The notes under the pieces are model-generated. The model made no database searches. It was given only the letters and a program-made list of their open reading frames with translations, and had not been told where the DNA came from. DNA of 64,000 nucleotides, from NCBI RefSeq assembly GCF_022095675.1, contig NZ_JAHYSG010000065.1, positions 6,279-70,278 of the forward strand. Reading direction: 5' to 3'. This stretch comes from Dactylosporangium sp. AC04546. Its GTDB lineage: Bacteria; Actinomycetota; Actinomycetes; Mycobacteriales; Micromonosporaceae. Positions 50,079 through 61,551 of the stretch are shown piece after piece; position 1 is the stretch's first letter; every line of letters begins with the position of its first letter. The position numbers were made by a program, and so were the translations under genes.

Positions 50079-50948
50079 ATGGATGGCATCTATGTCCCGT
50101 TGATCACGCCCTTCGATACTTCCGGTTCGGTCGATCTCGATGCCCTGCACGAGCTCGCCGGCTCGCTGCTCGCGGACGGCGTCGCCGGGTTCGTCGCGCT
50201 GGGCACGACCGGCGAGCCGGCCACGCTGTCCGAGGCCGAGCGCGACGAGGTGGTGGCCGTCTGCGCGAAGCTGGGGGCGCCGCTGATCGTCGGGGCCGGC
50301 GGGTCCGGCACCGCCGCGACGGTCGAGGCGCTCCGGCGGCTGCCGTCCGGCGTCACGGCGATGGTGATGGTGCCGCCGTACCTCAGGCCCGGCCCCGCGG
50401 GCGTGCTGGCCCACTTCCGCGCGGTCGCGGCGGCGTCGCCGGTGCCGGTCGTCGTCTATCACGTGCCGTACCGCACCGGGCAGGCCCTGGACCTGTCGAC
50501 GCTGCTCGAGATCGCCGCGATCCCCGGCGTGGCCGGCATGAAACTGTCCGACGGCCCGATCTCCGGCGACACCGTCGAGCTGCTCGGCGCGGTCCCCGCC
50601 GGCTTCCCGGTGCTGGGCGGGGACGACGCGGTGATCTCGCCGCTGCTGGCGCTGGGCGCCGCCGGCGGGATCCTGGCGTCGGCGCACATCGATACCGCGG
50701 CATTCGTCGAGCTGTATGCCGCCTGGAGCGCCGGCGACGTCGCCCGCGCGCGGCCGCTCGGGCGCCGGCTGGCCGGGCTGTCCCGCGCGCTCTTCGCCGA
50801 GCCGAACCCGGCCGTGATCAAGGCGGTGCTGCACGCGGAGGGGCGGATCGCGTCGCCGGCGGTGCGCCTGCCGCTGCTGCCGGCCTCGCCGGAGGCACTC
50901 GCGGCAGTGGCACGTTTCCGGGATTTGAACCGGCCCGGCCGCTCCTAA
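50079..50948 (+). CDS. DHDPS/NAL-family aldolase
   Basis: 289 residues of the dihydrodipicolinate synthase/N-acetylneuraminate lyase family. The Schiff-base lysine is Lys155 in GVAGMKLSD, the tyrosine is in VVYHVP, and the GTTGE loop is at ~42-46. The specificity residues differ from housekeeping DapA, and dapA is normally in another context, so a sugar-acid or pyruvate-linked aldolase is likely. It is probably controlled by the divergent LysR gene. ATG 50079 is chosen; 50043 is also possible. Confidence 0.88.
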   Translation: MDGIYVPLITPFDTSGSVDLDALHELAGSLLADGVAGFVALGTTGEPATLSEAERDEVVAVCAKLGAPLIVGAGGSGTAATVEALRRLPSGVTAMVMVPPYLRPGPAGVLAHFRAVAAASPVPVVVYHVPYRTGQALDLSTLLEIAAIPGVAGMKLSDGPISGDTVELLGAVPAGFPVLGGDDAVISPLLALGAAGGILASAHIDTAAFVELYAAWSAGDVARARPLGRRLAGLSRALFAEPNPAVIKAVLHAEGRIASPAVRLPLLPASPEALAAVARFRDLNRPGRS

Positions 50949-50999
50949 CGTTGGTGTCATCGCAGGGAGCGATACACCAACCAAGTCCAGGGGGACGAG

Positions 51000-51401
51000 A
51001 TGAGCGACCACTACGACGGCGGCGCCGACTACGAGCACTACGAGGCCGGCGAGGACCACCAGGCGCTCGACCAGCTGCACCAGGAGCACGCGGCCGAGCA
51101 GGACTACGCCAGCAACTTCAACGTCTACGAGCAGGACACCGAGTCCGCCGAGTCCACCGACTTCCAGCAGGGCCACGCCGTGCAGTACGACAGCCCGGAC
51201 GGCACGCACTACGAGGAGCAGGACTTCACCAACTACAGCAACGACTCGTACGACTCGAACCACGTCTTCGCGGCCGAGGGCTCCGAGTCCTACCACGCGG
51301 AGCAGTACGACGAGCTCGACGCGCTCAAGGCCCGCTTCGACTCGGCCTTCGTCGAGGGCACCGAGTACCACGGCGGCGGCTACGAGATCGCGGCCAAGTA
51401 G
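51000..51401 (+). CDS. Acidic Tyr/Ser-rich protein, paralogue 1 of 3
   Basis: 133 residues with no Cys, very few Lys, and many Asp, Glu, Tyr, Ser and His. No signal peptide, membrane helix or known domain is seen. The core NFNVYEQDTESAESTDFQQG, then DGTHYEEQDF, YDSNHVFAAEGSES and ELDALKARFDSAF, is shared with genes at 56213 and 61016. GGGGG sits seven bases before the ATG. The terminator at 51435 follows. Function is unknown; the composition suggests a mostly disordered or partner-folded protein. Confidence 0.85.
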   Translation: MSDHYDGGADYEHYEAGEDHQALDQLHQEHAAEQDYASNFNVYEQDTESAESTDFQQGHAVQYDSPDGTHYEEQDFTNYSNDSYDSNHVFAAEGSESYHAEQYDELDALKARFDSAFVEGTEYHGGGYEIAAK

Positions 51402-51434
51402 GGCTCTCCCAGCAGCATCCCACCCCTGGCGTAC

Positions 51435-51461
51435 GGCCGGTCACCCGCGCGGTGACCGGCC
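51435..51461. terminator. Bidirectional hairpin terminator
   Basis: GGCCGGTCAC and GTGACCGGCC form a perfect 10-base stem with a 7-base loop. It lies 33 bases after acidic paralogue 1 and contains the stop codon of the convergent PLDc_N gene, so it can serve both. Confidence 0.7.
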
Positions 51462-51878
51462 TTCGCCGTCCTGGCCCTCCTCCTCGCGGCGGCGCAGCTC
51501 CTCCTCGCGCCGGCGCAGGTCGGCCTCCCACTTGCTGAACATCTCCTCGTCGTCGCGCCGGCCCTTGGCGAGGCCCCGCAGGAACTCGGGGTCGTCGTCC
51601 GGCGCGACCGAGCGGCTGGGCCGGGTCGCCTCGGGGAACCCGCCGCCCGCCCGCCACTCGGCGCCGCGCCGTGCCACGGCGCGCTGGGGGCGGCCCGCGA
51701 CGAACCAGACGATCGCGCCGACCGGCGAGAACAGCAGGATGATGAACACCCAGGCGATCTTGGGCAGGTTGCGGATCTCGTCCTCGTCCGTCGACAGGCA
51801 GTCGATGAGCGCGACGACGAGCAGCGCGAGGTTGACCAGGAAGAGTAGTCCGTAGAGGCGCACCACGCGCCACATCAT
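51441..51878 (-). CDS. PLDc_N-domain membrane protein
   Basis: 145 residues. Two helices make the PLDc_N domain (LYGLLFLVNLALLVVALIDCL and IAWVFIILLFSPVGAIVWFV, with the typical LPKIAW and GRP end). The C-terminal ~70 residues are charged and likely coiled-coil (FSKWEADLRRREEELRRREEEG). It lacks phospholipase catalytic HKD motifs. It is probably a small envelope protein. Its stop is inside the terminator hairpin. Confidence 0.88.
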   Translation of the reverse strand: MMWRVVRLYGLLFLVNLALLVVALIDCLSTDEDEIRNLPKIAWVFIILLFSPVGAIVWFVAGRPQRAVARRGAEWRAGGGFPEATRPSRSVAPDDDPEFLRGLAKGRRDDEEMFSKWEADLRRREEELRRREEEGQDGEGRSPRG

Positions 51879-51931
51879 GCCGGACGCGCCCGCTTCTGTC
51901 CGCCCCTGGTGCACTCCAGCTTCCCGGAGGC

Positions 51932-53236
51932 TCATGCCGGACGCGGTCGCTCCTGTCCGGCCCGGTCTCCTCCGGTGGCCCGCAGGCTTCGGCCGACCTC
52001 GGCCGCCGCGTGCCTGGCGGCGTCCGTGACCTCGGCCCGGCGCAGGTCGGGCAGCACCGCGGTCAACGCGTCGACCCAGGCGAGCTCGGGCCGCACATGC
52101 CAGCGCCGGACCGCCTGGAGCGGCTTGGCGGCCTCCCGCAGCGCGCCGACCCGCTCGGCGGCGAGGCCGGGATCGTTGCCCTTGATCGCCCGCAGCGCCT
52201 CGGCGGCCCGCTTCCGCACGACCGCTCCGGTGCGGACGGGCACGAGCAGCGCCGCCGGAAGGACCGCGCAGAGCGCCCCGGCGACGACCGCGGCGAGCCG
52301 CCCGGCGAGCAGCGCGTGCGGATCGGCGACCCCGAGCAGCTGGTACAGCAGCGCGAGCGCGGCGGTGACACTCGCGGCCCACCAGGCGTAGCCGTAGTCG
52401 CGCAGCACGGCGCCGGCAGCGAGGACCGCGAGCAGCAGCCCGACGGTGAGGGTCCGGTTCGCGCCGACGGCGCCGGCGAGGAGCGTGGCGGCGACGGTAC
52501 CGCCCACGGCCCCGACCGTCCGGTGGATGCCCTTGAGGATCGCGTCACCGCGCGACCGGGCGGCGGCCCCGACGGTGTAGGCACTGATGACGGTCCACGC
52601 CCAGTGATCGCCGAAGACCGATTGCCCGACGAGGAAGGCGGCCGCGAGCGCGACACCGGCCTGCACCCCGCGCGCGAGGTGCACCCGCGCCGGCACTCCA
52701 GCGGCGGGCTCCTGCCGGACGGGCCGATCTCTGCGAACCATCAGCCCAACCGTCAGCACGTACGCGTCCGCGACCAGGACCGCCAGGGTCGCCCACAGCA
52801 GCGTCCGCAGCGGGTGGGCGCCCGGCGCAACGGGCGCGATCAGCATCCCGATCAGCGGCAGGACCAGCGCCCGGCCCACCGTCGCCGCCGCCCGCCCCAG
52901 CGCCCGGGCCGCCGTCGCCAGCGCCACGGCCAGCACGAAGAAGCAGTCCCCGGCCAGGTGCGACGCCCCGAACAGCACGGCGAACACCGCCACCGTCAGC
53001 GATCCGGCCGGAACCAGCAGCAACCGCCGCGCGTCGGTGTGGGGTGACCGGCCACCCATGAGGGCCACCGCCGCGCCCAGGACCACCACTCCGAGGCTCG
53101 CGAACGGCGCCAGCGTCGCGACCGTCGCCACCACGGGCAGCAACCCGACAGCCGCCCGCCTCGCGCGCGGACCAGTCGTCGCCGGGAAGATACTACGCAC
53201 CTGCTGAATAATCCGCTCGGCCCGGACGGCGGTCAA
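51932..53236 (-). CDS. FUSC-family membrane protein
   Basis: 434 residues with two clusters of hydrophobic helices (~28-165 and ~195-330), the second matching FUSC (GDHWAWTVISAYTVGAAARSRGDAILKGIHRTVGAVGG). Such proteins are linked to efflux of aromatic acids or similar compounds. The start appears to be TTG at 53236, close behind a TATAC box, so a leaderless mRNA is possible. It is divergent from the MarR gene, its likely regulator. Confidence 0.85.
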   Translation of the reverse strand: MTAVRAERIIQQVRSIFPATTGPRARRAAVGLLPVVATVATLAPFASLGVVVLGAAVALMGGRSPHTDARRLLLVPAGSLTVAVFAVLFGASHLAGDCFFVLAVALATAARALGRAAATVGRALVLPLIGMLIAPVAPGAHPLRTLLWATLAVLVADAYVLTVGLMVRRDRPVRQEPAAGVPARVHLARGVQAGVALAAAFLVGQSVFGDHWAWTVISAYTVGAAARSRGDAILKGIHRTVGAVGGTVAATLLAGAVGANRTLTVGLLLAVLAAGAVLRDYGYAWWAASVTAALALLYQLLGVADPHALLAGRLAAVVAGALCAVLPAALLVPVRTGAVVRKRAAEALRAIKGNDPGLAAERVGALREAAKPLQAVRRWHVRPELAWVDALTAVLPDLRRAEVTDAARHAAAEVGRSLRATGGDRAGQERPRPA

Positions 53237-53289
53237 GGGGTCCGTATAGTGAGGCGATCGACGATCCCGAGCTGGCGGCCGCCCGGGCC

Positions 53290-53688
53290 GTGCGGCGGGC
53301 CACGCAGCGGCTCTCGCGGCGGCTTCAGGCGCAGCGCGCCCCCGAAGGGCTCAGCCTGACCAAGATCAGCCTGCTCGGGCACCTCGCGCGGCGCGGGCCC
53401 ATGGCCGCCGGGGCGCTTGCCGCGGCTGACCGGCTGCAGCCACAGTCCGTCACCCGCGTGCTCGCCGAACTGGAGCAGGCCGGGCACATCGAGCGCGTCG
53501 CCAACCCGGCCGACCGGCGGCAGCGGGTGTTTTCGATCAGCGCCGCCGGGCGGGCGGCGCTGCGCGAGGACATGCGGTGGCGCGACGAGTGGCTGGCCGC
53601 GGCCATGCGCGCCGGGCTGAGCGACGCGGAGCGCGAGCTGATCGCGGCGGCGGCTACGGTACTGGAGCGGCTGGCCGACTCAGAGTGA
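53290..53688 (+). CDS. MarR-family regulator
   Basis: 132 residues from a GTG. The winged helix runs through LSLTKISLLGHLARRGPMAAGALAAADRLQPQSVTRVLAELEQAGHIERVANPADRRQRVFSISAAG, typical of MarR. The reading frame stays open upstream to about 53242 without an ATG, so the true start could be earlier. It is divergent from the FUSC gene and probably represses it in response to a phenolic compound. The 3' end overlaps the MBL gene by 9 bases. Confidence 0.85.
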   Translation: MRRATQRLSRRLQAQRAPEGLSLTKISLLGHLARRGPMAAGALAAADRLQPQSVTRVLAELEQAGHIERVANPADRRQRVFSISAAGRAALREDMRWRDEWLAAAMRAGLSDAERELIAAAATVLERLADSE

Positions 53689-54282
53689 GCGCGCCTCGGC
53701 GCCGATCGTCGTGTCGGTGCCGTGGCCGGTGTGCACGACCGTGTCCGCGGGCAGCGTCAGCAGCCGGGTGCGGATCGAGTTGAGAATCGTGGGCTTGTCC
53801 GAAAATGATCGGCCTGTCGCGCCCGGCCCGCCCTGGAACAGGGTGTCGCCGGTGAAGACCACGCGGAGCGACGGCGCGTAGAAGCAGACGGCTCCGGGGC
53901 TGTGGCCGGGCGTGTGCAGTACCGTCAGGACCACCCCGCCCGCGGTGAGCTCCTGACCGTCCGTGAGGTGCGTGTCCGGCTCCAGGTCCGGGTACTTCAT
54001 GTGCCACAGCACCAGGTCGTCGGCGTGCAGCAGGATCGGCGCGCCGGTGCGCAGGGCGAGGTCGGGGGCCGCGTCGATGTGGTCGTCGTGGCCGTGCGTG
54101 CAGGCGATCGCCACGACCCGCCGGTGGCCGACGGCGTGCAGGATCGCGTCCGCGTCGTGGGCGGCGTCGATCACGACCACCTCGTCGTCGTCGCCGACGA
54201 TCCACACGTTGTTGTCGACGTCGAAGGTCTCCCCGTCGAGCGAGAACGTCCCCGACGTGACCACCCGGTCGATGCGCGCCAT
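53680..54282 (-). CDS. Metallo-beta-lactamase-fold hydrolase (glyoxalase II-like)
   Basis: 200 residues. The metal site THGHDDHID, HTPGHSPG, FTGDTLF and VHTGHGTDT are all present, in the layout of glyoxalase II-like thioesterases. It may cleave an S-acyl adduct of mycothiol or another thiol. The ATG at 54282 is clear. It is convergent with the MarR gene. Confidence 0.9.
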   Translation of the reverse strand: MARIDRVVTSGTFSLDGETFDVDNNVWIVGDDDEVVVIDAAHDADAILHAVGHRRVVAIACTHGHDDHIDAAPDLALRTGAPILLHADDLVLWHMKYPDLEPDTHLTDGQELTAGGVVLTVLHTPGHSPGAVCFYAPSLRVVFTGDTLFQGGPGATGRSFSDKPTILNSIRTRLLTLPADTVVHTGHGTDTTIGAEARSL

Positions 54283-54315
54283 AGCCTTACCGTATGCGCT
54301 CCGCCCGCTCGGCGC

Positions 54316-54534
54316 TCACCCTTCGAGAGCGGCACGCCGGCGCCGCACGTACGGCAGCGCGAACATGTACAGCCCGGTGCCGAGCAGCAGCCCGAGCGGC
54401 AGCAGCGGCGTGAGCGTGAGCCAGATCGCCGGCTCCTCCTGCACGACCACGACGGCGGTGACGAGCACGACGCTCAGCGTGAACGCGATCGACGTCCAGC
54501 GGTGGAACTGCCTGATGCCCTTGCTCCAGTTCAT
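54316..54534 (-). CDS. Small two-helix membrane protein
   Basis: 72 residues from the ATG at 54534. MNWSKGIRQFHRWTSIAFTLSVVLVTAVVVVQ and WLTLTPLLPLGLLLGTGLYMFALPYV give two membrane helices with an RRRR tail inside. A longer frame to 54591 has no better start. No family is assigned. It lies on the same strand as the MBL gene, 33 bases upstream of it. Confidence 0.75.
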   Translation of the reverse strand: MNWSKGIRQFHRWTSIAFTLSVVLVTAVVVVQEEPAIWLTLTPLLPLGLLLGTGLYMFALPYVRRRRAALEG

Positions 54535-54665
54535 GGCTGACCTCCCTCGGTACCCCCCGGCGACCTGCCGGGCGGAACGTTCGGAAGCCACGCTAGGCGC
54601 GCGTCAGGCCCGCCCGCTTCTCGAAACCTGCGCGCCTTCGGGGTGACGCCGGCGCGGGCGCGGCC

Positions 54666-54947
54666 TCATCGCCGGCCTCCGTGCGGGGAAGCCGTTCGTC
54701 GTGTCGTCGCGCGGCGGAAGGCTGCGCGTTCCTGTTCGGTGCTGCCGCCCCAGATGCCGTGGCGTTCGCCGGCCGTGATGGCGTGGCGCGCGCAGGGGCG
54801 GCGCACCGGGCAGGTCGCCCAGAAGGACTGGGCCCGGGTCACCGCCAGGCGGTCGTCCGGGTCCGGGTAGAACCAGGTCACGTCCAGGCCGCGGCAGGCC
54901 GCCAGGTCCCGCCACCCGTCCTGCGAAGATCGGCAGACAAAGCGCAT
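54666..54947 (-). CDS. WhiB-like protein with a variant cysteine set
   Basis: 93 residues from the ATG at 54947. The Wbl pattern is clear: DGWRDLAACRGLDVTWFYP, then CPVRRPC, the GIWGG beta-turn (residues 64-68) and a basic C-terminal tail. Canonical WhiB proteins use four cysteines (C...CxxC-x5-C) for a [4Fe-4S] cluster. Here Cys18, Cys46 and Cys52 are in place, but the CxxC partner is Trp43. Cys5 near the start could replace it. It probably binds a sigma factor or DNA, but its cluster may be unusual. Confidence 0.85.
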   Translation of the reverse strand: MRFVCRSSQDGWRDLAACRGLDVTWFYPDPDDRLAVTRAQSFWATCPVRRPCARHAITAGERHGIWGGSTEQERAAFRRATTRRTASPHGGRR

Positions 54948-55093
54948 GCGGCGCACGCTACTGACCGGACATGCGCGCGACATCAGTACTTTTACTGCGG
55001 GTGCGGTCCGGGTGCCGGGTCGGAGCGGGGCGGTGCGAGCGGTCAGGGTGACGCCCGGCACGCCGAACCAAGAGCGACGCCGGCCACGCCCCG

Positions 55094-55305
55094 ATGCGCT
55101 GGTCGCCGCCGAACGGCTACCCGGACGTCGCCGCGGCGTGGGCGGCCCTGTCGGGCTTCCTGATCCGCTGGAACGCGCACCTGAACGACCACCTCAACGA
55201 GCTGGCCCTGGCGCTCGAGGCGTTCGCGACCGCGGCGTCGGCTCGCTCGCGCAGGTGTTCCCGGGCGTCAGCCCGGCCGGATATGGGCTGGTCACAGCTC
55301 GGTAG
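55094..55305 (+). pseudogene. Possible frameshifted small gene
   Basis: In the 376-base gap between WhiB and the kinase gene, an ATG at 55094 opens a helical peptide (NGYPDVAAAWAALSGF, then WNAHLNDHLNELALALEAF). Around 55235-55255 the protein-like pattern moves to another frame (SLAQVFPGVSPAGYGLVTAR) and stops at 55305. Codon use at third positions is GC-rich in both parts. It may be a remnant or a sequencing error. Nothing else is seen in the gap. Confidence 0.3.
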
Positions 55306-55323
55306 GGCTGCTGTAATCGGCCG

Positions 55324-56220
55324 ATGGCGCGCATCGGCTGGGACGACCTTCCCGACCAGGTCCGGCACGGCGTCGAGGACATCCTCGGCGCCCCGGTGGC
55401 GTCCGCGGTCTCCCAGCCGGGCGGCTTCTCCCCCGGTACCGCTGACCGCGTGACAACACGGGCCGGCTCCCGCGCCTTCGTGAAGGCCGTCGGCGCCGCC
55501 CTCAACGAGGTGAGCCCGGTGATGCATCGGGCCGAGGCCCGGGTGACGGCGGCGCTGCCCGCGTCGACGCCGACCCCGCGACTGCTCGGCTTCTACGACG
55601 ACGGCGACTGGGTGGCGCTGGTCTTCGAGGACGTCGACGGCCGGCCGCCGCACGTGCCGTGGCGGCCCGACGAGCTGGAAGCGGCCCTGGAGGCACTGCG
55701 CCGCCTGCCGGTGCCGGTGACCGGCCTGCCGCCGCTGGCGTCACAGATCGCCTTCGACGGCTGGCGCAACCTCAAAGCCGACCGGGCGCGCGGCCTGGAC
55801 CCCTGGGCGGCGGCACGGCTGGACGAGCTGGCCGCCTGGGCCGACCGCGGGACGGCGGCCCTGGCCGGCACCTCGCTCGTGCACGGCGACCTGCGCTCCG
55901 ACAACCTGCTCATCCGGGCCGACGGCTCGGTGGTGGTGGTCGACTGGCCGTTCGGCTCGGCCGGCCCGCCGTGGTTCGACACGCTGTCGCTGATCCTCAA
56001 CGTCCGCCTCTACGGCGGCACACTCCCGGACTCCGTGCTGGACTCGTTCGCACCGGACCCTGACGACGTGACCGGCTGTGTGGCGGGCCTGGCCGCGTTC
56101 TTCACCGACCGGGCCCGCCTGCCCGCTCCCCCTGCCCTGCCGACCCTGCGCCGCTTCCAGCACGACCAGTCGGTGGTCATGCTGGAGTGGCTCCGCGAGC
56201 GGCTGCACAGGGCTACTTGA
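55324..56220 (+). CDS. Aminoglycoside phosphotransferase-like kinase
   Basis: 298 residues of the APH/choline-kinase fold. The catalytic loop reads LVHGDLRSDNLLI and the metal motif VVVVDWPFG (Asp kept). The glycine loop region is QPGGFSPGTADRV, with Lys in RAFVKAVG. Substrates of this wide family include sugars and antibiotics; resistance is not implied. The stop overlaps acidic paralogue 2 by 8 bases. Confidence 0.85.
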   Translation: MARIGWDDLPDQVRHGVEDILGAPVASAVSQPGGFSPGTADRVTTRAGSRAFVKAVGAALNEVSPVMHRAEARVTAALPASTPTPRLLGFYDDGDWVALVFEDVDGRPPHVPWRPDELEAALEALRRLPVPVTGLPPLASQIAFDGWRNLKADRARGLDPWAAARLDELAAWADRGTAALAGTSLVHGDLRSDNLLIRADGSVVVVDWPFGSAGPPWFDTLSLILNVRLYGGTLPDSVLDSFAPDPDDVTGCVAGLAAFFTDRARLPAPPALPTLRRFQHDQSVVMLEWLRERLHRAT

Positions 56221-56578
56221 CCGAGTACTCGGTGCCGGTGGCGAACGCACTGTCGAACTGGGCGCGCAGGGCGTCGAACTCGCTCCAGTCGGCGACGTGC
56301 GCCGACTCGCTGCCCTCGGCGGCGAAGACGTGCTCGGTGGCGTACTCGTCGTGGCTGTAGCTGACGTAGTCGGTGGACTCGTAGTGGGCGCCGTTCGGGT
56401 CGGTGTACTCGACGTGGCGGCCCTGCTCGAAGTCGGTGGACTCGGCCGAGGTGTGGTCCTGCTCGTAGACGGCGAAGTCGCTGTTGTAGTCGGCCTCGCT
56501 GGCGGAGGCCTCGTGCAGCTGCTCGACCTCGCCGCTCTCGGCGCCGGTCGCGTACTGGCCGTATTCGATGTCGCTCAT
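56213..56578 (-). CDS. Acidic Tyr/Ser-rich protein, paralogue 2 of 3
   Basis: 121 residues, Cys-free and strongly acidic. It shares SEADYNSDFAVYEQDHTSAES with the copy at 61016 almost residue for residue, and also STDFEQG, GAHYEST, HVFAAEGSES and EFDALRAQFDSAF with both others. AGGAGG sits five bases before the ATG, the strongest ribosome site of the three, so high expression is likely. Function unknown. Confidence 0.85.
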   Translation of the reverse strand: MSDIEYGQYATGAESGEVEQLHEASASEADYNSDFAVYEQDHTSAESTDFEQGRHVEYTDPNGAHYESTDYVSYSHDEYATEHVFAAEGSESAHVADWSEFDALRAQFDSAFATGTEYSVK

Positions 56579-56659
56579 GTCTTCCTCCTGGGAATCTCGT
56601 GTGTTGACAACGAAATTACGGCCGCCGCCGCGGCGGCGAATCCCGGAAGCGTGCCAGCG

Positions 56660-57529
56660 TCAGCGCTCCAGCGTCGTGCCGGTCGCGACCGCGCCGAGCT
56701 TGTCGGGGTTGGCCACGTTGTGGATCTCGCGGATGCGGCCCTCGTCGTCGAGGTCGAAGGTCACCGTGGCGATCACGCGGCCCGCGCCCGTGAAGACGAT
56801 GCCCGGGGCGCCGTTCAGCTCGACCAGGTCGGCGCGCATGTCGGCGGGGTCGACGCCCTCGTACGGGCGGGTGGCGACCGCCGCGAACCAGGTCGCCACG
56901 TGCTCGGCGCCGACCACCGGGCGCAGGGCCTGGCGGACCTTGCCGCCGCCGTCCGTCCACAGTGTCACGTCCGGGGCGAGCAGCTCCATCAACGCGTTGA
57001 GATCGCCGCCCGTCGACGCGGCGAAGAACCGCTCGGTCACCTCGCGGTGGCGGGTACGCGTCGCCGGGTACCGGGGCCGGCGGGTCCGCACGTGCTCGCG
57101 GGCCCGGTGGGCCGCCTGGCGGACGGTGTCCTCGGAGCGCTCGACGGCCGACGCGATCTCGCCGTAGCCGAACCCGAACGCCTCCTTCAGCACGAAGACC
57201 GCCCGCTCCAGCGGGCTGAGCTGCTCCAGTACCACGAGCAGGGCCATCGACACCGAGTCCGCGTCGACGGCCTCCGTGGTCGGCACCGGCTCCGGCAGCC
57301 ACGGGCCGACGTAGGTCTCCCGCCGCGCCTGCGCCGAGCGCAGCCGGTCCATGGCCAGGTTCGACACGATCCGCACCAGGTACGAGCGCGGGTCGGCGAC
57401 CTGCGAGCGGTCCGCCGACGACCAGCGCAGCCAGGCGTCCTGCACCGCGTCCTCGGCGTCGGCCGCCGAGCCGAGGACGCGGTACGCCACCGAGAACAGC
57501 AGGTTCCGGTGCTCATCGAAGACACTCAC
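56660..57529 (-). CDS. ECF41-type RNA polymerase sigma factor
   Basis: 289 residues. Region 2 (FDEHRNLLFSVAYRVLGSAADAEDAVQDAWLRW) and region 4 (LSPLERAVFVLKEAFGFGYGEIASAVERSEDTVRQAAHRARE) are followed by a SnoaL-like C-terminal domain with DGGGK and NPDKL, the two marks of ECF41 factors, where that domain controls activity in place of an anti-sigma. The GTG start overlaps the stop of the oxidoreductase, the usual ECF41 partner. A CTTCACG-17 nt-CGTC stretch upstream of the oxidoreductase (58723-58750) is a weak match to the ECF41 promoter. Confidence 0.9.
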   Translation of the reverse strand: MSVFDEHRNLLFSVAYRVLGSAADAEDAVQDAWLRWSSADRSQVADPRSYLVRIVSNLAMDRLRSAQARRETYVGPWLPEPVPTTEAVDADSVSMALLVVLEQLSPLERAVFVLKEAFGFGYGEIASAVERSEDTVRQAAHRAREHVRTRRPRYPATRTRHREVTERFFAASTGGDLNALMELLAPDVTLWTDGGGKVRQALRPVVGAEHVATWFAAVATRPYEGVDPADMRADLVELNGAPGIVFTGAGRVIATVTFDLDDEGRIREIHNVANPDKLGAVATGTTLER

Positions 57530-58683
57530 CGGGTGTACTTCCCGCCGCGGCGCCAGGCGAACATTCCCGACGCGGGCAGCTTGTAGGTGCGGGCGAACCC
57601 GGGCCACGGTGACGCGCTCACCGTCTCCTTGTACCAGGCCGCGCGGCGGCCCGTGAGGTACATCCGCCGCGGGCTCCCGTCGGGGTGGGTGAACTGCACC
57701 ACCGCGTCGCCCCGCCCCAGGCTGACCGGCGTGTGGAAGTAGCCGAAGCGGAACGGCCGCGGCGCCTTGCCGGCGAGCGCGCGGACGATCGTGGCGGCGG
57801 CGTGGACGCCGGTCGGCATGCCGCTCTGACACGTGCCGTGCATCATGCCGTACCGCTGGCGGATCGCGGCCGCGTCGCCGATCGCGTAGACGTCCGGGTG
57901 CGACACCGATCGCAGGAACGCGTCCGTCACGATGCGGCCGCGGTCGTCGACGGTGAGCCCCGCGGCGGCGGCGAGCGGCGCGACCCGGACCCCGCCGACC
58001 CAGAGCACGACGTCGGCGGCGACGGTCTCGCCGCCGGCCAGTTCGACGCCGTGCGGCAGCACCTTGACGATGTCGCTGTCCGCGCGAACGCGCACGCCGA
58101 GCCGGCGCAGTGCGTGGTCGAGGTGCCGCCGGGCGGCCGGGCCGAACGCGGCGCCCGGTTCCTCGCGGGCGAGCAGCACGACGTCCAGCCCGGGGTGCCG
58201 CTCGGCGAGCTCGGCCGCCGCCTCGATGCCGGTGAGCCCGCCGCCGCACACCGCGACCGTCCGGTGCTCGCCGCCGGCCAGGCGATTCGCCAGTACCGTG
58301 GCCTCGGCCGGCCCGTCGAGCGTGAACGCGTGGTCGTCGGCGCCGGGCACCGCCCGCGTGTCGGTCACGCTCCCCAGTGCGTAGACGAGGGTGTCGTACC
58401 GCACGATTCGCTCATCGTCGACGCGCACCGTGCGCGTTTCGGGGTCGATCCCGGTCACCCAGCCGGTCACCAGCTCGATGCCGGTACCGCGCAGCAGGTC
58501 GGGGATGCGCAGGTCCTTGAGCTCCTGCCCGGAGGCGACCTGGTGCAGCCGCAGGCGCTCGGTGAAGCGCTCGCTCGCCGAGACGACCGTGACGCGCACG
58601 TCCTGCTTGCGGGTGCGGCCGGCGAGGCTGACGGCGGCGGTCAGGCCGGCGTAGCCGGCGCCCAGAACCACGATCTTGTGCAT
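57526..58683 (-). CDS. FAD/NAD(P) oxidoreductase (NDH-2-like), ECF41 partner
   Basis: 385 residues. FAD motif VVLGAGYAGLTAAVSL at the start, NAD(P) motif VAVCGGGLTGIEAAAELA in the middle (~150-165), and a second FAD contact DVYAIGDAAAI. The layout fits type II NADH dehydrogenase-like enzymes. In ECF41 modules the first gene is commonly such an oxidoreductase or a carboxymuconolactone decarboxylase-like protein. It probably drives expression of, or signals to, the sigma factor it overlaps. Confidence 0.88.
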   Translation of the reverse strand: MHKIVVLGAGYAGLTAAVSLAGRTRKQDVRVTVVSASERFTERLRLHQVASGQELKDLRIPDLLRGTGIELVTGWVTGIDPETRTVRVDDERIVRYDTLVYALGSVTDTRAVPGADDHAFTLDGPAEATVLANRLAGGEHRTVAVCGGGLTGIEAAAELAERHPGLDVVLLAREEPGAAFGPAARRHLDHALRRLGVRVRADSDIVKVLPHGVELAGGETVAADVVLWVGGVRVAPLAAAAGLTVDDRGRIVTDAFLRSVSHPDVYAIGDAAAIRQRYGMMHGTCQSGMPTGVHAAATIVRALAGKAPRPFRFGYFHTPVSLGRGDAVVQFTHPDGSPRRMYLTGRRAAWYKETVSASPWPGFARTYKLPASGMFAWRRGGKYTR

Positions 58684-58782
58684 GTCCGTTGTCCTTCCCG
58701 TGTCGTTCTTTGACGAACACGAGACGGATCGCCGCGGGCCGGGCGTGAAGCGTGGTGGCGGGCGTCACACCCGCCGGACGCC

Positions 58783-59319
58783 TCAGCAGGCGTCGGCGGC
58801 CTTCCGGTCGAACTCGGCGCGGGTCATGACCGTGTCGGTGCGTACCTGGTCGGGGCCGAGCTGCTCGAGTTCGGCGAGCGTGAAGTGCAGCGGGGTCGGG
58901 GGCGGCTGCGCGAACACGTCGATGCGGTACACGACGCCTTCCTGCAGCTCCAGCGGCCCGGTCGGCGACGGCTGCGGCGCCGCTGGCTGCGACGGCTCGG
59001 CTGCTGCCGATACGTTGAACAGGGCCTCGGCCGCCCAGCCTTGCGGGACGACACCGAGCTCGATCGTCTCCGGGGCGCGGCTCGGCACGGTGCGGTTGAC
59101 GCGCCACAGGATGTCACCGAACCGGTCCGGCGGGTCGGTACGCAGCTGCAGGCCGGGCTGGTACTCCTTGCACAGCCGGAGGTGGACGACGGGCCGGCCG
59201 TCGGCGGTGCGGCCGAGCGCGAGCAGCGGCAGGGTCGGCTGCGGGCAGGCCGCGAGCGTGGACGCGGCCACGGCGAGCAGTGCGATCGAGGCGCCTCTAC
59301 GGAGCATGGAGGCGATCAT
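58783..59319 (-). CDS. Predicted lipoprotein
   Basis: 178 residues. MLRRGASIALLAVAASTLAAC gives a signal with lipobox LAAC, so it should be lipid-anchored outside. Mature sequence includes HLRLCKEYQPGLQLR, a Pro-rich stretch PSQPAAPQPSPTGPL and a final Cys that could pair with the internal Cys. A start at 59307 is also possible. No family is recognised. Confidence 0.75.
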   Translation of the reverse strand: MIASMLRRGASIALLAVAASTLAACPQPTLPLLALGRTADGRPVVHLRLCKEYQPGLQLRTDPPDRFGDILWRVNRTVPSRAPETIELGVVPQGWAAEALFNVSAAAEPSQPAAPQPSPTGPLELQEGVVYRIDVFAQPPPTPLHFTLAELEQLGPDQVRTDTVMTRAEFDRKAADAC

Positions 59320-59499
59320 GGACTGCCGGCCGCGCTACCGCTGTCCGCGCATGGACACACATGGCGACTACGTTATGTCACCGCACGGGTGCATCCGGTG
59401 ACGAAATTTCGTGAAATATCCTTCTTGCCTTCGCATTTCGGGTTAGGTGGAGGTCGCGACGGACGTTCCCCGTCGATCACTCGTCGAAAGGTCGTCATC

Positions 59500-60012
59500 A
59501 TGAAACGCTGGCTCATCCGGTCGGTGCAGGTAGCCGCGCTGTCGCTGGGTGGCCTCGCGCTCACCGGCACGGCGGCGCACGCCGACTGGCACAGCGGTCC
59601 GAACGTCGGTTTCTTCAACGGGAACCAGACCTCGACCACCGTCCAGGTGCCGGTGAACATCTGCGGCAACTCCCTGGCGATCCTCGGCATCGCCAGCGCA
59701 AACTGCAACGGCGGCGCAAACGCCTACTCCGGCAACGGCGGCAACTCCAGCGGCGCCGGCAACGCGAACGCCAGCTCGCACAAGAAAAAGAAGAAGAAGT
59801 ACAGCAACAACGCCTACTCCTCGAGCAACGGCAACGGCGGCGCGTACTCGAACGGTGGCGGCGGGGCGAACGCGTACAGCAACAACGGCGACTGGACGAG
59901 CGGCTACAACGTCGGCCTCTTCAACGGCAACCAGACCTCGACCACCGTCCAGGTCCCGATCAACGTGTCGTGCAACTCGGTGGCCGTGATCGGCATCTCC
60001 CAGAGCTGCTGA
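59500..60012 (+). CDS. Secreted chaplin-like protein with two chaplin domains
   Basis: 170 residues with a signal peptide (cut near AHA). Two chaplin-like domains, NVGFFNGNQTSTTVQVPVNI and NVGLFNGNQTSTTVQVPINV, each continue with a CGNSLAILGI or CNSVAVIGI part. A linker of Asn/Gly/Ser repeats with a run of six lysines (SSHKKKKKKYS) joins them. Chaplins are amyloid-forming surface proteins of aerial hyphae and spores in Streptomyces. There is no LPxTG anchor. AAAGG lies nine bases before the ATG, and hairpins follow at 60025 and 60053. Confidence 0.8.
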   Translation: MKRWLIRSVQVAALSLGGLALTGTAAHADWHSGPNVGFFNGNQTSTTVQVPVNICGNSLAILGIASANCNGGANAYSGNGGNSSGAGNANASSHKKKKKKYSNNAYSSSNGNGGAYSNGGGGANAYSNNGDWTSGYNVGLFNGNQTSTTVQVPINVSCNSVAVIGISQSC

Positions 60013-60024
60013 CAACCTGACCAC

Positions 60025-60041
60025 GGGGCACCGCCTGCCCC
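60025..60041 (+). terminator. Short GC hairpin after the chaplin-like gene
   Basis: GGGGCA-5 nt-TGCCCC, 12 bases after the stop codon, forms a compact six-base stem. It is the first of two hairpins between the chaplin-like and PhzF genes. Confidence 0.55.
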
Positions 60042-60052
60042 GAAGCGTCTGC

Positions 60053-60111
60053 GAGCGTTGGCCGATGTATCCCGCGGGATCAGCCCTCCCGAGGTACAAC
60101 GGCCAACGCTC
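60053..60111. repeat. Family B-related hairpin copy 4
   Basis: Arms beginning GAGCGTTGGCCG pair perfectly for 12 bases and then for TGTA after one mismatch, around a loop of about 23 bases. The CGTTGG core and size resemble family B, but the GGTCGATC part is changed. It lies between convergent genes. Confidence 0.6.
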
Positions 60112-60120
60112 TTCGCTCTT

Positions 60121-60942
60121 TCAGTCGGGCATCCGGACCGCGGTGCCGGTGACGGCGATGCCGGTGGCCGGGTCGGCGTCCAGGGCGACCGTGAGCAGGC
60201 TGGGGCGGCCCATGTCGGCGCCCTGGTGGATCGTCAGCGTGGTCGGGGTCTCGACCAGGGACAGCTCGCGCAGGTAGCCGCCGAACGCGGCGGCCGCGGC
60301 ACCCGTGGCCGGGTCCTCGTAGACGCCGCCGGGCGGGAACGGGTTGCGGGCGTGGAAGACCGTGGGCGACTCGCGCCAGACCAGGGCGACGGTCGTCCAG
60401 TCCTGGGCCGCCATCAGGTCGCGCAGCGCGGGCACGTCGTAGTCGAGGTCGGCCAGGCGCTCGCGGGTCGGCGCGGCGACGACCGGGTGCCAGGCGCCGG
60501 CGTACGCGGCCCGCAGCGGGAGCGCCTCGTCGGTCGTGTCCCAGCGCAGGGCACGCAGCAGTGCGGCGCGGACGTCGGCCGGGATCTCGCGGGTCGCCGG
60601 CGGGACGCTGCGCAGTGTCGCCGTGCCGGGCGTGGTGTCGACGTGGATGTCGCCGGCGTTCGCGCGGAGGTCGAGCGGGCCGGGGCCGAAGCGCTCGGCG
60701 TACGCCACCGCGGTCGCGATCGTCGCGTGCCCGCAGAACGGGACCTCGGCCAGCGGGCTGAAGTAGCGGATCCGGCCGCCGGCCTGCCCCTCGGGGAAGA
60801 GGAACGCCGTCTCCGAGTAGCCGACCTCGGCCGCGATCGCCTGCATCTTGGCGTCGTCGAGGCCGGTCGCGTCGAGCACGACCCCGGCCGGGTTGCCGCC
60901 GGCCGGATCGGTGCTGAACGCGCTGTACCGCAGAATCTCCAT
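60121..60942 (-). CDS. PhzF-family isomerase-like protein
   Basis: 273 residues of the PhzF fold. The catalytic Glu44 is in GYSETAFLF, with the paired CGHAT motif at ~70-74 and the second-half motif EDPATGAAAAAFGGYL. Members are isomerases or epimerases. No phenazine genes are nearby, so the substrate is unknown. It is a single gene, convergent with the chaplin-like gene. Confidence 0.88.
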   Translation of the reverse strand: MEILRYSAFSTDPAGGNPAGVVLDATGLDDAKMQAIAAEVGYSETAFLFPEGQAGGRIRYFSPLAEVPFCGHATIATAVAYAERFGPGPLDLRANAGDIHVDTTPGTATLRSVPPATREIPADVRAALLRALRWDTTDEALPLRAAYAGAWHPVVAAPTRERLADLDYDVPALRDLMAAQDWTTVALVWRESPTVFHARNPFPPGGVYEDPATGAAAAAFGGYLRELSLVETPTTLTIHQGADMGRPSLLTVALDADPATGIAVTGTAVRMPD

Positions 60943-61015
60943 GCCTCGACGCTAGGCGCGCCGGGTGGCGGCCGTGCGGTCCAATCCGTTTCCGGTGGAC
61001 CGCATGGCCTGGTGC

Positions 61016-61420
61016 CTAGTTGGACGTGATCGAGTGGCCGCCGTCGCCGCCCTCGATGTGCGTCGCCTCCTGGAACGACGAGTCCAGCTGCTGGCGCAGG
61101 GCGTCGAGCTCGGAGAACTGGGCCTGGTGCGACTCCTCGGAGCCCTCGGCCGCGAAGACGTGGTTCGAGTCGTACGAGTCGTGGCTGTAGTTCGTGAAGT
61201 TCTGCTCTTCGTAGTGCGCACCGTCCGGGCTGTCGAACTCCACGGAGTTGCCCTGCTGGAAGTCGGTGGACTCGGCCGACACGGTGTCCTGCTCGTAGAC
61301 GTTGAACTGCGAGTTGTAGTCGGCCTCGCTGCCCTCGGCCTGGTGGAGCTGGTCGAGCTCGGCGTGCTCCGCGCCGGCCTCCGCGTGACCGTACTCGAAG
61401 CCGGGGTCGTAGTCGCTCAT
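61016..61420 (-). CDS. Acidic Tyr/Ser-rich protein, paralogue 3 of 3
   Basis: 134 residues, Cys-free and strongly acidic. QFNVYEQDTVSAESTDFQQG, GAHYEEQNFTNYSHDSYDSN, HVFAAEGSE and ELDALRQQLDSSF match the copies at 51000 and 56213; the C-terminus is Gly/His/Ser-rich. The N-terminus DYDPGFEYGHAEAGAEHAEL is the most variable part. GGGAG lies about ten bases before the ATG. Function unknown. Confidence 0.85.
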   Translation of the reverse strand: MSDYDPGFEYGHAEAGAEHAELDQLHQAEGSEADYNSQFNVYEQDTVSAESTDFQQGNSVEFDSPDGAHYEEQNFTNYSHDSYDSNHVFAAEGSEESHQAQFSELDALRQQLDSSFQEATHIEGGDGGHSITSN

Positions 61421-61551
61421 GGTGATGGTCTCCCTCGGATGCGGGCTCGGGTGCTGTGACCGACGTTACGTTGCGCTCCGCGACCTGGTATCCCCCGAAC
61501 AGGCCACCCGCCCGACCCGGTAGAACCCCTGGAACGCGGTCCGGACGGACG

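What the first reader, a model, noticed from the sequence alone, without database searches (positions are those of the whole stretch)
51000..61420. Three paralogues of an unrecognised acidic, Cys-free, Tyr/Ser-rich protein within 10.4 kb
Genes at 51000-51401 (+), 56213-56578 (-) and 61016-61420 (-) share a core with VYEQD, SAESTDF, HYE, HVFAAEGSE and DALR/K...FDS blocks, yet they lie in unrelated neighbourhoods and on both strands. Each has a good ribosome site. I recognise no known family. The repeated Tyr/Ser and Glu/Asp content suggests a disordered protein that folds on a partner, perhaps a chaperone-like buffer, an envelope adhesin or a regulator. Three dispersed copies imply selection for more than one version.
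Basis: partly seen in the sequence, partly recalled or inferred. Interest (0 to 1): 0.78.

Follow-up and report, generated by a model that had tools for sequence, protein, structure and literature searches.

The report
Multiplied acidic proteins with one switch
The three look-alike genes belong to an undescribed family of small acidic proteins, found in several copies in each Dactylosporangium genome examined and preceded by one shared promoter element that also sits in front of a dynamin-like gene cluster resembling the cell-wall stress system of mycobacteria, so a role in envelope stress can now be tested.

Summary
In detail: three real paralogues (55% and 66% identical to the first copy, Cys-free, net charge -25 to -30), without a credible Pfam or NCBIfam match. 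They are 3 of 12 matches in this 13-Mb Dactylosporangium genome. All 7 genomes of the genus examined have 7-14 matches; a profile found none in 114 other Micromonosporaceae.

The key is the promoter. 36 of 41 copies scored carry TGGCAC-N6-GGGA(T/G)T, exactly 20 nt, TAnnnT; window copy C has a degenerate form. In the genome's 13 Mb the core pattern occurs 13 times: 10 before family copies, one before another acidic gene, one before an LCP cell-wall-enzyme locus, one between a STAND-ATPase/LuxR regulator and a dynamin-GTPase operon. That last site is identical (44/44) in 7 species; the element occupies this gap in 40 of 42 related loci. The locus resembles mycobacterial iniR-iniBAC; one dynamin matches IniA.

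Best reading: an IniR-like envelope-stress regulon whose small acidic arm has been multiplied. Coding sequences are homogenised by gene conversion while promoters stay locus-specific, suggesting dosage rather than distinct versions. Regulator binding and the proteins' molecular action (IniB-like dynamin accessory or polyanionic buffer) are inferred.

The parts
50908..50925 (+). Shared promoter element TGGCACGTTTCCGGGATT of copy A
   Evidence: Exact match; expected 0.00 in 100 dinucleotide shuffles at up to 3 mismatches
50946..50951 (+). -10-like TAACGT, exactly 20 nt after the element
51000..51401 (+). Copy A of the acidic family (133 aa)
   Evidence: GC3 1.00
51435..51461 (+). Hairpin GGCCGGTCACC-N5-GGTGACCGGCC, terminator-like
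56639..56656 (-). Promoter element TGGCACGCTTCCGGGATT of copy B (1 mismatch)
56613..56618 (-). -10-like TAATTT at the same spacing
56213..56578 (-). Copy B of the acidic family (121 aa)
61489..61506 (-). Degenerate element TGGCCTGTTCGGGGGATA of copy C (6 mismatches, spacing kept)
61463..61468 (-). -10-like TAACGT at the same 20-nt spacing
61016..61420 (-). Copy C of the acidic family (134 aa)
   Evidence: AlphaFold2 model
60975..61004 (-). Imperfect hairpin after copy C, possible terminator

Best explanation
The three genes are members of a genus-specific, multi-copy family of small, probably cytosolic acidic proteins that form the amplified target arm of an IniR-like envelope-stress regulon. 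Proposed chain: (1) a STAND ATPase with a LuxR-type DNA-binding domain, encoded elsewhere in the genome, senses an envelope or metabolite signal (inferred by analogy with mycobacterial IniR); (2) it binds TGGCAC-N6-GGGAT at about -50 to -33 and activates a -10 promoter at fixed spacing (element and spacing shown; binding inferred from position, conservation and co-occurrence); (3) this switches on together a dynamin-like GTPase operon with IniA similarity and many single-gene acidic proteins (shared element shown; co-expression inferred); (4) the acidic proteins, made in quantity, act as IniB-like accessories of the dynamin machinery or as polyanionic/cation-binding buffers at stressed membrane (inferred, weakest step). 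Copies are kept nearly identical within a genome by gene conversion of the transcribed unit, so the multiplicity most likely serves dosage.
For: Family: 12 matches in own genome; 7 of 7 genomes of the genus with 7-14, 0 of 54 others; profile 7 of 121 in the family, all in the genus. Element: of 41 copies recovered by my gene caller, 36 have at most 4 mismatches, with TA...T at exactly 20 nt in 36 of 36, while the spacer varies. Core pattern in own 13 Mb: 13 hits against 1 for the reversed pattern; by place, 10 precede family copies, the others the STAND/dynamin locus, an LCP locus and another acidic gene. STAND/dynamin site identical 44/44 in 7 species; the same gap holds the element (looser pattern, N5-7 and 18-24 nt) in 13 of 14 and 27 of 28 related loci. 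Regulator: GerE 1.2e-17, AAA_16 9e-5 (below Pfam's cut-off); two Dynamin_N proteins 2e-15 and 2e-14; Hsp70 neighbour. Larger dynamin against PDB 6j72 IniA, E 1.2e-19; the other 3.9e-6. Strict element against regulator match in 121 genomes: 38 of 40 versus 42 of 81, Fisher 5.6e-7. In 7 loci the first gene after the element is an acidic Cys-free protein, with the dynamin reading frame seen after it in L330, L331 and L334. Independently of the element, in 5 genomes (G011, G065, G071, G073, G088) a DxDGDG gene found lies divergently next to the regulator match. Codon bias suggesting high expression: C-ending 0.986 versus 0.930 in neighbours. Gene conversion. Published parallel: IniR, a STAND activator, binds upstream of iniBAC; RNA-seq suggests excess IniB; M. 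smegmatis has a dnaK-like gene beside iniR (PMC5760070; sections read).
Against: No binding, expression or phenotype data. The regulator was not aligned with mycobacterial IniR, nor the element sought before mycobacterial iniB. Two genomes (G105, G138) have the strict element but no regulator match at E 1e-60; G008 has a DxDGDG gene with a 4-mismatch element (L282) but no regulator match; 42 genomes have the regulator without the strict element (several have looser forms). Genomes are related, so the Fisher value is optimistic. Published IniR controls only iniBAC, whereas this regulon would be wide. In Dactylosporangium no family member lies in the dynamin operon itself. The family shares no detectable homology with the DxDGDG proteins beyond the MS[DE] start. 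Window copy C and some diverged copies have a degenerate or unrecognised element. One locus in each set lacks the element (L339, L360; L360 nevertheless has a divergent DxDGDG gene).
Confidence: 0.6

Rival explanations
1. The element belongs to another activator (for example an AdpA-type AraC regulator or a developmental factor) and the acidic proteins are sporangium or spore proteins; the STAND gene is only one target or bystander.
For: TGGCACGTTT fits TGGCSNGWWY at 9 of 10 positions by eye (that this string is the AdpA consensus is recalled; the listing shows it in AdpA papers). The genus is sporangiate (recalled). PMC10733313 (passages) describes sigma control of sporangium dehiscence in Actinoplanes.
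Against: The 18-bp bipartite site is far more specific than an AdpA site and is nearly confined to acidic genes and the STAND/dynamin locus. The published sigma-SsdA motif GnTT-n14-CGGGTA differs. The element adjoins the STAND regulator in 40 of 42 loci. Genera with the element include Phytohabitans and Asanoa (names), which to my recollection form no sporangia.
Confidence: 0.15
2. The proteins are general polyanionic metal or calcium buffers, or desiccation protectants, with no functional tie to dynamins.
For: Net charge -25 to -30, 6-8% His, no Cys; His at positions 26, 69, 87, 98 at least 90% conserved in 92 sequences; under the same element sister genera make DxDGDG, calcium-loop-like proteins.
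Against: Does not explain the shared element with the dynamin/STAND locus or the acidic first gene beside the regulator in other genera. No metal-binding family matched the window proteins.
Confidence: 0.25
3. The copies are a selfish dispersed repeat or an inversion/phase-variation device rather than an expressed functional family.
For: Identical inverted pairs, a segment inverted between two copies in D. fulvum versus D. roseum, partial copies at contig ends.
Against: Several positions are syntenic across species; most copies scored have the conserved promoter; identity between copies stops near the promoter and shortly after the coding region; strong codon bias. dN/dS is 0.31-0.73 in 7 of 8 orthologue comparisons, 1.12 in one with few changes.
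Confidence: 0.06
4. DNA-mimic or anti-defence protein: an acidic fold that titrates DNA-binding proteins.
For: High negative charge and a predicted hairpin/helix core.
Against: No phage or defence family among the ten neighbours scanned with Pfam; chromosomal positions shared between species, under an envelope-type promoter; no significant structure match.
Confidence: 0.04

Closest known systems
iniR-iniBAC cell-envelope stress system of mycobacteria (PMC5760070)
   Same: STAND ATPase with LuxR-type DNA-binding domain next to a dynamin-like GTPase operon, one dynamin matching IniA, an Hsp70/dnaK-like neighbour, small or variable companion proteins
   Different: Published IniR acts on iniBAC only; here a defined element also precedes most of the 7-14 dispersed single-gene acidic copies; IniB is described as glycine-rich, the window proteins are not; regulator orthology not tested by alignment with IniR
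DxDGDG acidic repeat proteins (thrombospondin type 3/EF-loop-like) of Micromonosporaceae and relatives
   Same: Same promoter element, MS[DE] start, acidic, mostly Cys-free, similar size; in some genera the first gene beside the regulator, before the dynamin
   Different: The window family has no calcium-loop repeats; profile comparison finds no homology beyond the start
DUF5709 (a label that UniRef gives to two family members)
   Same: Name only
   Different: Those two members (P0070, P0090) match no Pfam model even at E 1

Membership tests
iniR-iniBAC-like system (the locus carrying the element) | STAND ATPase + LuxR HTH regulator adjacent to the operon | tested here: met
   L323:7045-9720, GerE 1.2e-17; AAA_16 9.2e-5, below Pfam's gathering score
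iniR-iniBAC-like system (the locus carrying the element) | Two dynamin-like GTPases, one an IniA homologue | tested here: met
   Dynamin_N twice; PDB 6j72 IniA E 1.2e-19
iniR-iniBAC-like system (the locus carrying the element) | Regulator binds upstream of the operon and responds to trehalose or envelope drugs | not testable with these tools
   Known in mycobacteria (PMC5760070); here only position and conservation of the element
iniR-iniBAC-like system (the locus carrying the element) | Regulator is an orthologue of mycobacterial IniR | not tested
   No direct alignment made; the N-terminal AAA and C-terminal LuxR domains agree with the published description; the MalT-like middle domain was not tested
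IniB (for the window proteins) | Glycine-rich body with conserved IniB N-terminal region | tested here: not met
   No glycine-rich body; no NCBIfam/Pfam match. Whether those libraries hold an IniB model was not checked, so the N-terminal region is untested
Thrombospondin type 3 / EF-hand repeats (for the window proteins) | DxDxDG calcium loops | tested here: not met
   No loops; hhalign aligns 6 columns only, probability 0.8%
AdpA regulon | TGGCSNGWWY operator bound by AdpA | tested here: inconclusive
   9 of 10 positions by eye; binding not testable
Sigma-SsdA regulon (Actinoplanes) | GnTT-n14-CGGGTA promoter | tested here: not met
   Motif compared by eye with the aligned promoters

The most novel reading that the evidence does not exclude
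An ancient IniR-type envelope-stress circuit, with one operator conserved across several families of the order, has in Micromonosporaceae captured many unlinked genes for unrelated acidic proteins; in Dactylosporangium a new fold (long polar beta-hairpin plus helix) became the main arm beside the calcium-loop proteins, was multiplied to as many as 14 places and is kept uniform by gene conversion as a dosage device that supplies an IniB-like polyanionic partner to a membrane-remodelling dynamin.
Probability: 0.42. Interest if true: 0.82.

Novelty: new variant of a known kind. Interest (0 to 1): 0.72.

Why it matters
The role of IniB is called unclear in the IniR paper, and no IniR DNA site turned up in the passages I searched. 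A sharply conserved candidate operator, found next to the regulator in 40 of 42 loci and in front of dozens of small acidic genes in soil actinomycetes, makes both questions testable outside pathogens. It also offers a case of concerted evolution of a dispersed bacterial protein family in which coding sequence and promoter have different histories.

Tried and rejected
Known family: Pfam and NCBIfam at E up to 1 gave only chance hits for the window proteins; three further family members (P0070, P0090 and one of the diverged type) and one other acidic protein matched nothing in Pfam; PDB by sequence none; Foldseek none at E 1e-3 or better, the best (E 0.47) being beta-hairpin stems of pore-forming toxins, which I give no weight. 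Homology with DxDGDG proteins: hhalign negative, reversed control also negative. Operon partners: neighbours are unrelated. Sigma-SsdA promoter: does not fit. Wide occurrence of the element: 0 of 295 other genomes in a phylum sample. The stricter pattern over 84,980 species gave 51 stretches: by record title 46 in Micromonosporaceae genera and 5 elsewhere (Hymenobacter, a Eubacteriaceae MAG, Glycomyces, a Bacillota MAG, Nostoc); one search shows no family-like gene after any of the five.

Rows dropped or mis-assigned: my gene caller missed several copies (for example those in L039, L048, L050, L061, L063), so 'of 41' means those it found in the stretches fetched; L068:9330 (contig end) was left out; L046 had a wrong start, so its promoter was not scored there (an element lies at G001:C1:9888034-9888051), and was trimmed for the tree; the codon count left out family ORFs of 200 codons or more; L048 copies were treated apart; L277 had a wrong start. 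In one search, L343 (an internal fragment of the regulator, no element) and the own locus L328 (element present) are not in '13 of 14'; with L343 it is 13 of 15. The A2 alignment holds 3 window proteins and 89 of the 120 listed homologues. The end of the script crashed on a print line; the results above it stand.
Full report
OBSERVATION. The three ORFs are real and homologous along their length: 133, 121 and 134 aa, 55% and 66% identity to the first copy, 55 invariant columns of 135. They are Cys-free, net charge -25 to -30, with 0-2 Lys and 1-2 Arg each. Pfam and NCBIfam give no credible match, the PDB none.

EXTENT OF THE FAMILY. The window's own genome (13.0 Mb, 348 contigs) has 12 matches at E <= 1e-3. 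In 61 genomes, 7 of 7 of the same genus have 7-14 matches (some of them fragments at contig ends) and 0 of 54 others have any. A profile of the most diverged type finds 7 of 121 genomes of the family, again only the genus. Contig lengths identify the relatives as D. vinaceum, D. sucinum, D. fulvum, D. roseum, D. siamense and D. aurantiacum. Of 174 homologous proteins in a 5.8-billion set, 120 are listed; the organism names shown there are all Dactylosporangium, and many rows have none.

GENE ANATOMY. Copies are single genes in unrelated neighbourhoods; several positions are shared between species. Of the 41 copies that my gene caller recovered in the fetched stretches, 36 carry TGGCACGTTTCCGGGATT with at most 4 mismatches; in 36 of 36 a TAnnnT -10-like hexamer starts exactly 20 nt later, while the spacer between is variable. 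The five others: window copy C (6 mismatches, spacing kept), L053 (5), L041 (7), L068:8690 (8), and L046 (wrong start in my script). In the window the element occurs twice at up to 3 mismatches, 0.00 expected. Window copy A ends in a strong terminator-like hairpin. Codon choice suggests strong expression: 0.986 C-ending in C/T-ending two-fold codon boxes versus 0.930 in neighbouring genes.

PREDICTED SHAPE. AlphaFold2 on a 92-sequence alignment gives mean pLDDT 59: residues 1-37 under 50, a long antiparallel hairpin 43-63/69-89 (block means 81-84 at residues 51-80, 56 and 64 at its ends) and a helix 96-120 at 50-66. A divergent member with a 14-sequence alignment, nine rows of which were of the common type, gives the same layout (mean 58; hairpin 35-57/63-85 with block means up to 95).

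THE PROMOTER LEADS OUT OF THE FAMILY. In the own genome 9 of 10 element matches (at most 2 mismatches) precede family copies; the tenth precedes a different acidic protein with DxDGDG repeats. With at most 2 mismatches the element is in 54 of 121 Micromonosporaceae genomes. With the -10 included it is in 40 of 121 (33 of 114 outside the genus), the reversed pattern in none of the 121, and in 0 of 295 other genomes of a phylum sample. In other genera it mostly precedes acidic, mostly Cys-free proteins that begin MS[DE] and often end near NPYA; some matches precede unrelated genes (e.g. L134, L135, L146, L172) or none that I could read (L119, L133, L139) and are probably chance or separate cases. 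The reverse test: a DxDGDG profile, blind to promoters, found members in 42 of 61 genomes at E 1e-15; 23 of the 30 loci fetched have the element within 4 mismatches upstream, 18 of 25 without the five profile seeds, which had been found through the element. One of the 23 (L288) lacks a -10 at the right distance. Four weaker matches in the own genome (L297-L300) have none. Family and DxDGDG proteins are not detectably homologous: the promoter, not the protein, is the common thread.

THE REGULATOR LOCUS. The relaxed core TGGCAC-N6-GGGA, 21-22 nt, TAnnnT gives 13 hits in the own genome and 90 in seven genomes of the genus (reversed pattern: 1 in all). In the own genome 10 precede family copies, one another acidic gene (L210), one a small membrane protein followed by an LCP cell-wall glycopolymer transferase, and one lies upstream of a dynamin-like GTPase. 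That last site, 44 bases, is identical in all seven species. It sits at the divergent start of an 891-aa ORF with AAA and LuxR-type domains (the true start is probably later, since the ORF as called runs over the element) and an operon with two Dynamin_N proteins, followed by a 231-aa acidic protein; an Hsp70-like gene converges. The larger dynamin matches IniA (PDB 6j72) at E 1.2e-19. With a somewhat looser pattern, related regulator loci from the order search have the element in the same gap in 13 of 14 cases (L329-L342; 15 of 200 genomes had a regulator match), those from the family search in 27 of 28 (L344-L371; 80 of 121 genomes). Strict element and regulator co-occur: 38 of 40 genomes with the element have the regulator, against 42 of 81 without (Fisher 5.6e-7; outside the genus 31 of 33 against 42 of 81, 9.5e-6); shared ancestry makes these values optimistic, and G105, G138 and G008 are exceptions. 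In seven of the loci the first gene after the element is itself an acidic Cys-free protein (L330, L331, L334, L341, L342, L353, L363); for L330, L331 and L334 the dynamin reading frame is seen after it. By coordinates alone, five genomes (G011, G065, G071, G073, G088) have a DxDGDG gene divergently next to the regulator.

COMPARISON WITH WHAT IS KNOWN. Mycobacterial IniR is a STAND ATPase with a LuxR-like C-terminus, encoded near iniBAC, that binds upstream of iniBAC; trehalose activates the operon; M. smegmatis has a dnaK-like gene next to iniR; RNA-seq suggested excess IniB; the role of IniB is called unclear (PMC5760070: abstract and sections 10, 11, 17 read). IniA performs membrane fission (PMC6715688: passages). 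The layout here matches, so I call it iniR-iniBAC-like; orthology of the regulator was not tested. I found nothing in print on this family or element in the ten paper searches.

EVOLUTION. The protein tree groups many copies by species rather than by syntenic position (8 of 10 D. vinaceum rows together at 99/99; 7 D. fulvum/D. roseum rows split by species at 90/89 and 91/85). Copies at some positions instead follow position: the diverged type, the pair beside the NADH-dehydrogenase-like gene, the multicopper-oxidase pair and window copy A with its D. sucinum counterpart. In D. fulvum two neighbouring copies share 0.98 of coding bases but 0.62 of promoter bases; one of them against the D. roseum copy with the same promoter shares 0.94 and 0.98. 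Two inverted pairs (L048, L067) have 100% identical coding segments; identity falls to background within roughly 90-115 nt upstream, at the element, and about 100 nt downstream. This is the signature expected of gene conversion of the transcribed unit. A segment between two inverted copies is itself inverted in D. fulvum relative to D. roseum.

HOW IT MOST LIKELY WORKS. Shown: family, element, fixed spacing, position of the element at the regulator/dynamin locus, the pattern of homogenisation. Inferred: the STAND protein binds the element and co-activates dynamins and acidic proteins; the acidic proteins are abundant cytosolic accessories or polyanionic buffers in membrane or envelope stress. 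Likelihood, my judgement: regulator-element link about 0.8; envelope-stress regulon about 0.65; direct IniB-like role with the dynamins about 0.4.

LIMITS. No expression, binding or phenotype data; trehalose sensing is only an analogy; the organism of the window is named by kinship with named genomes, not directly.

Noticed in passing
L054:9780-10592 versus L060:10092-9280: A segment between two inverted family copies at a shared locus is inverted between D. fulvum and D. roseum while the outer flanks are collinear: recombination between copies appears to rearrange the chromosome.
   Followed up: partly
L298:118-1746 (own genome contig C187), ending about 1.4 kb before the element at C187:4585: A 542-aa Gly/Tyr-rich protein with a Frankia_peptide/NHLP-like N-terminus (below the curated cut-offs) and C-terminal DxDGDG loops, perhaps IniB-like in build.
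   Followed up: partly
L323:9610-9780: Between element and dynamin start lies a short ORF beginning ATGAGCGAGGTC (MSEV...), possibly a remnant of an acidic first gene (read by eye).
   Followed up: no
L040, L052, L059, L066, L070, L071, L072: The most diverged family type sits at a shared position in all seven species, near a gene I read by eye as a magnesium/cobalt-chelatase-like protein; iniBAC induction is B12-dependent in M. marinum (title in a reference list; discussion).
   Followed up: no
P0150, P0176, P0178, P0187, P0220, P0227: Short proteins matching the DxDGDG query in Gordonia and mycobacteria are annotated 'pullulanase', probably a misannotation (four of the six sequences seen).
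   Followed up: no
L325:8473 (-) and L326: The element before a small membrane protein and an LCP family transferase, with the same core in 6 of 7 Dactylosporangium genomes and a similar site in the seventh (downstream gene read in two).
   Followed up: partly
L172 and L242: A similar element lies 50 nt before a large proline-rich protein with a membrane-anchor-like segment (by eye) in G133 and in Glycomyces dulcitolivorans.
   Followed up: no
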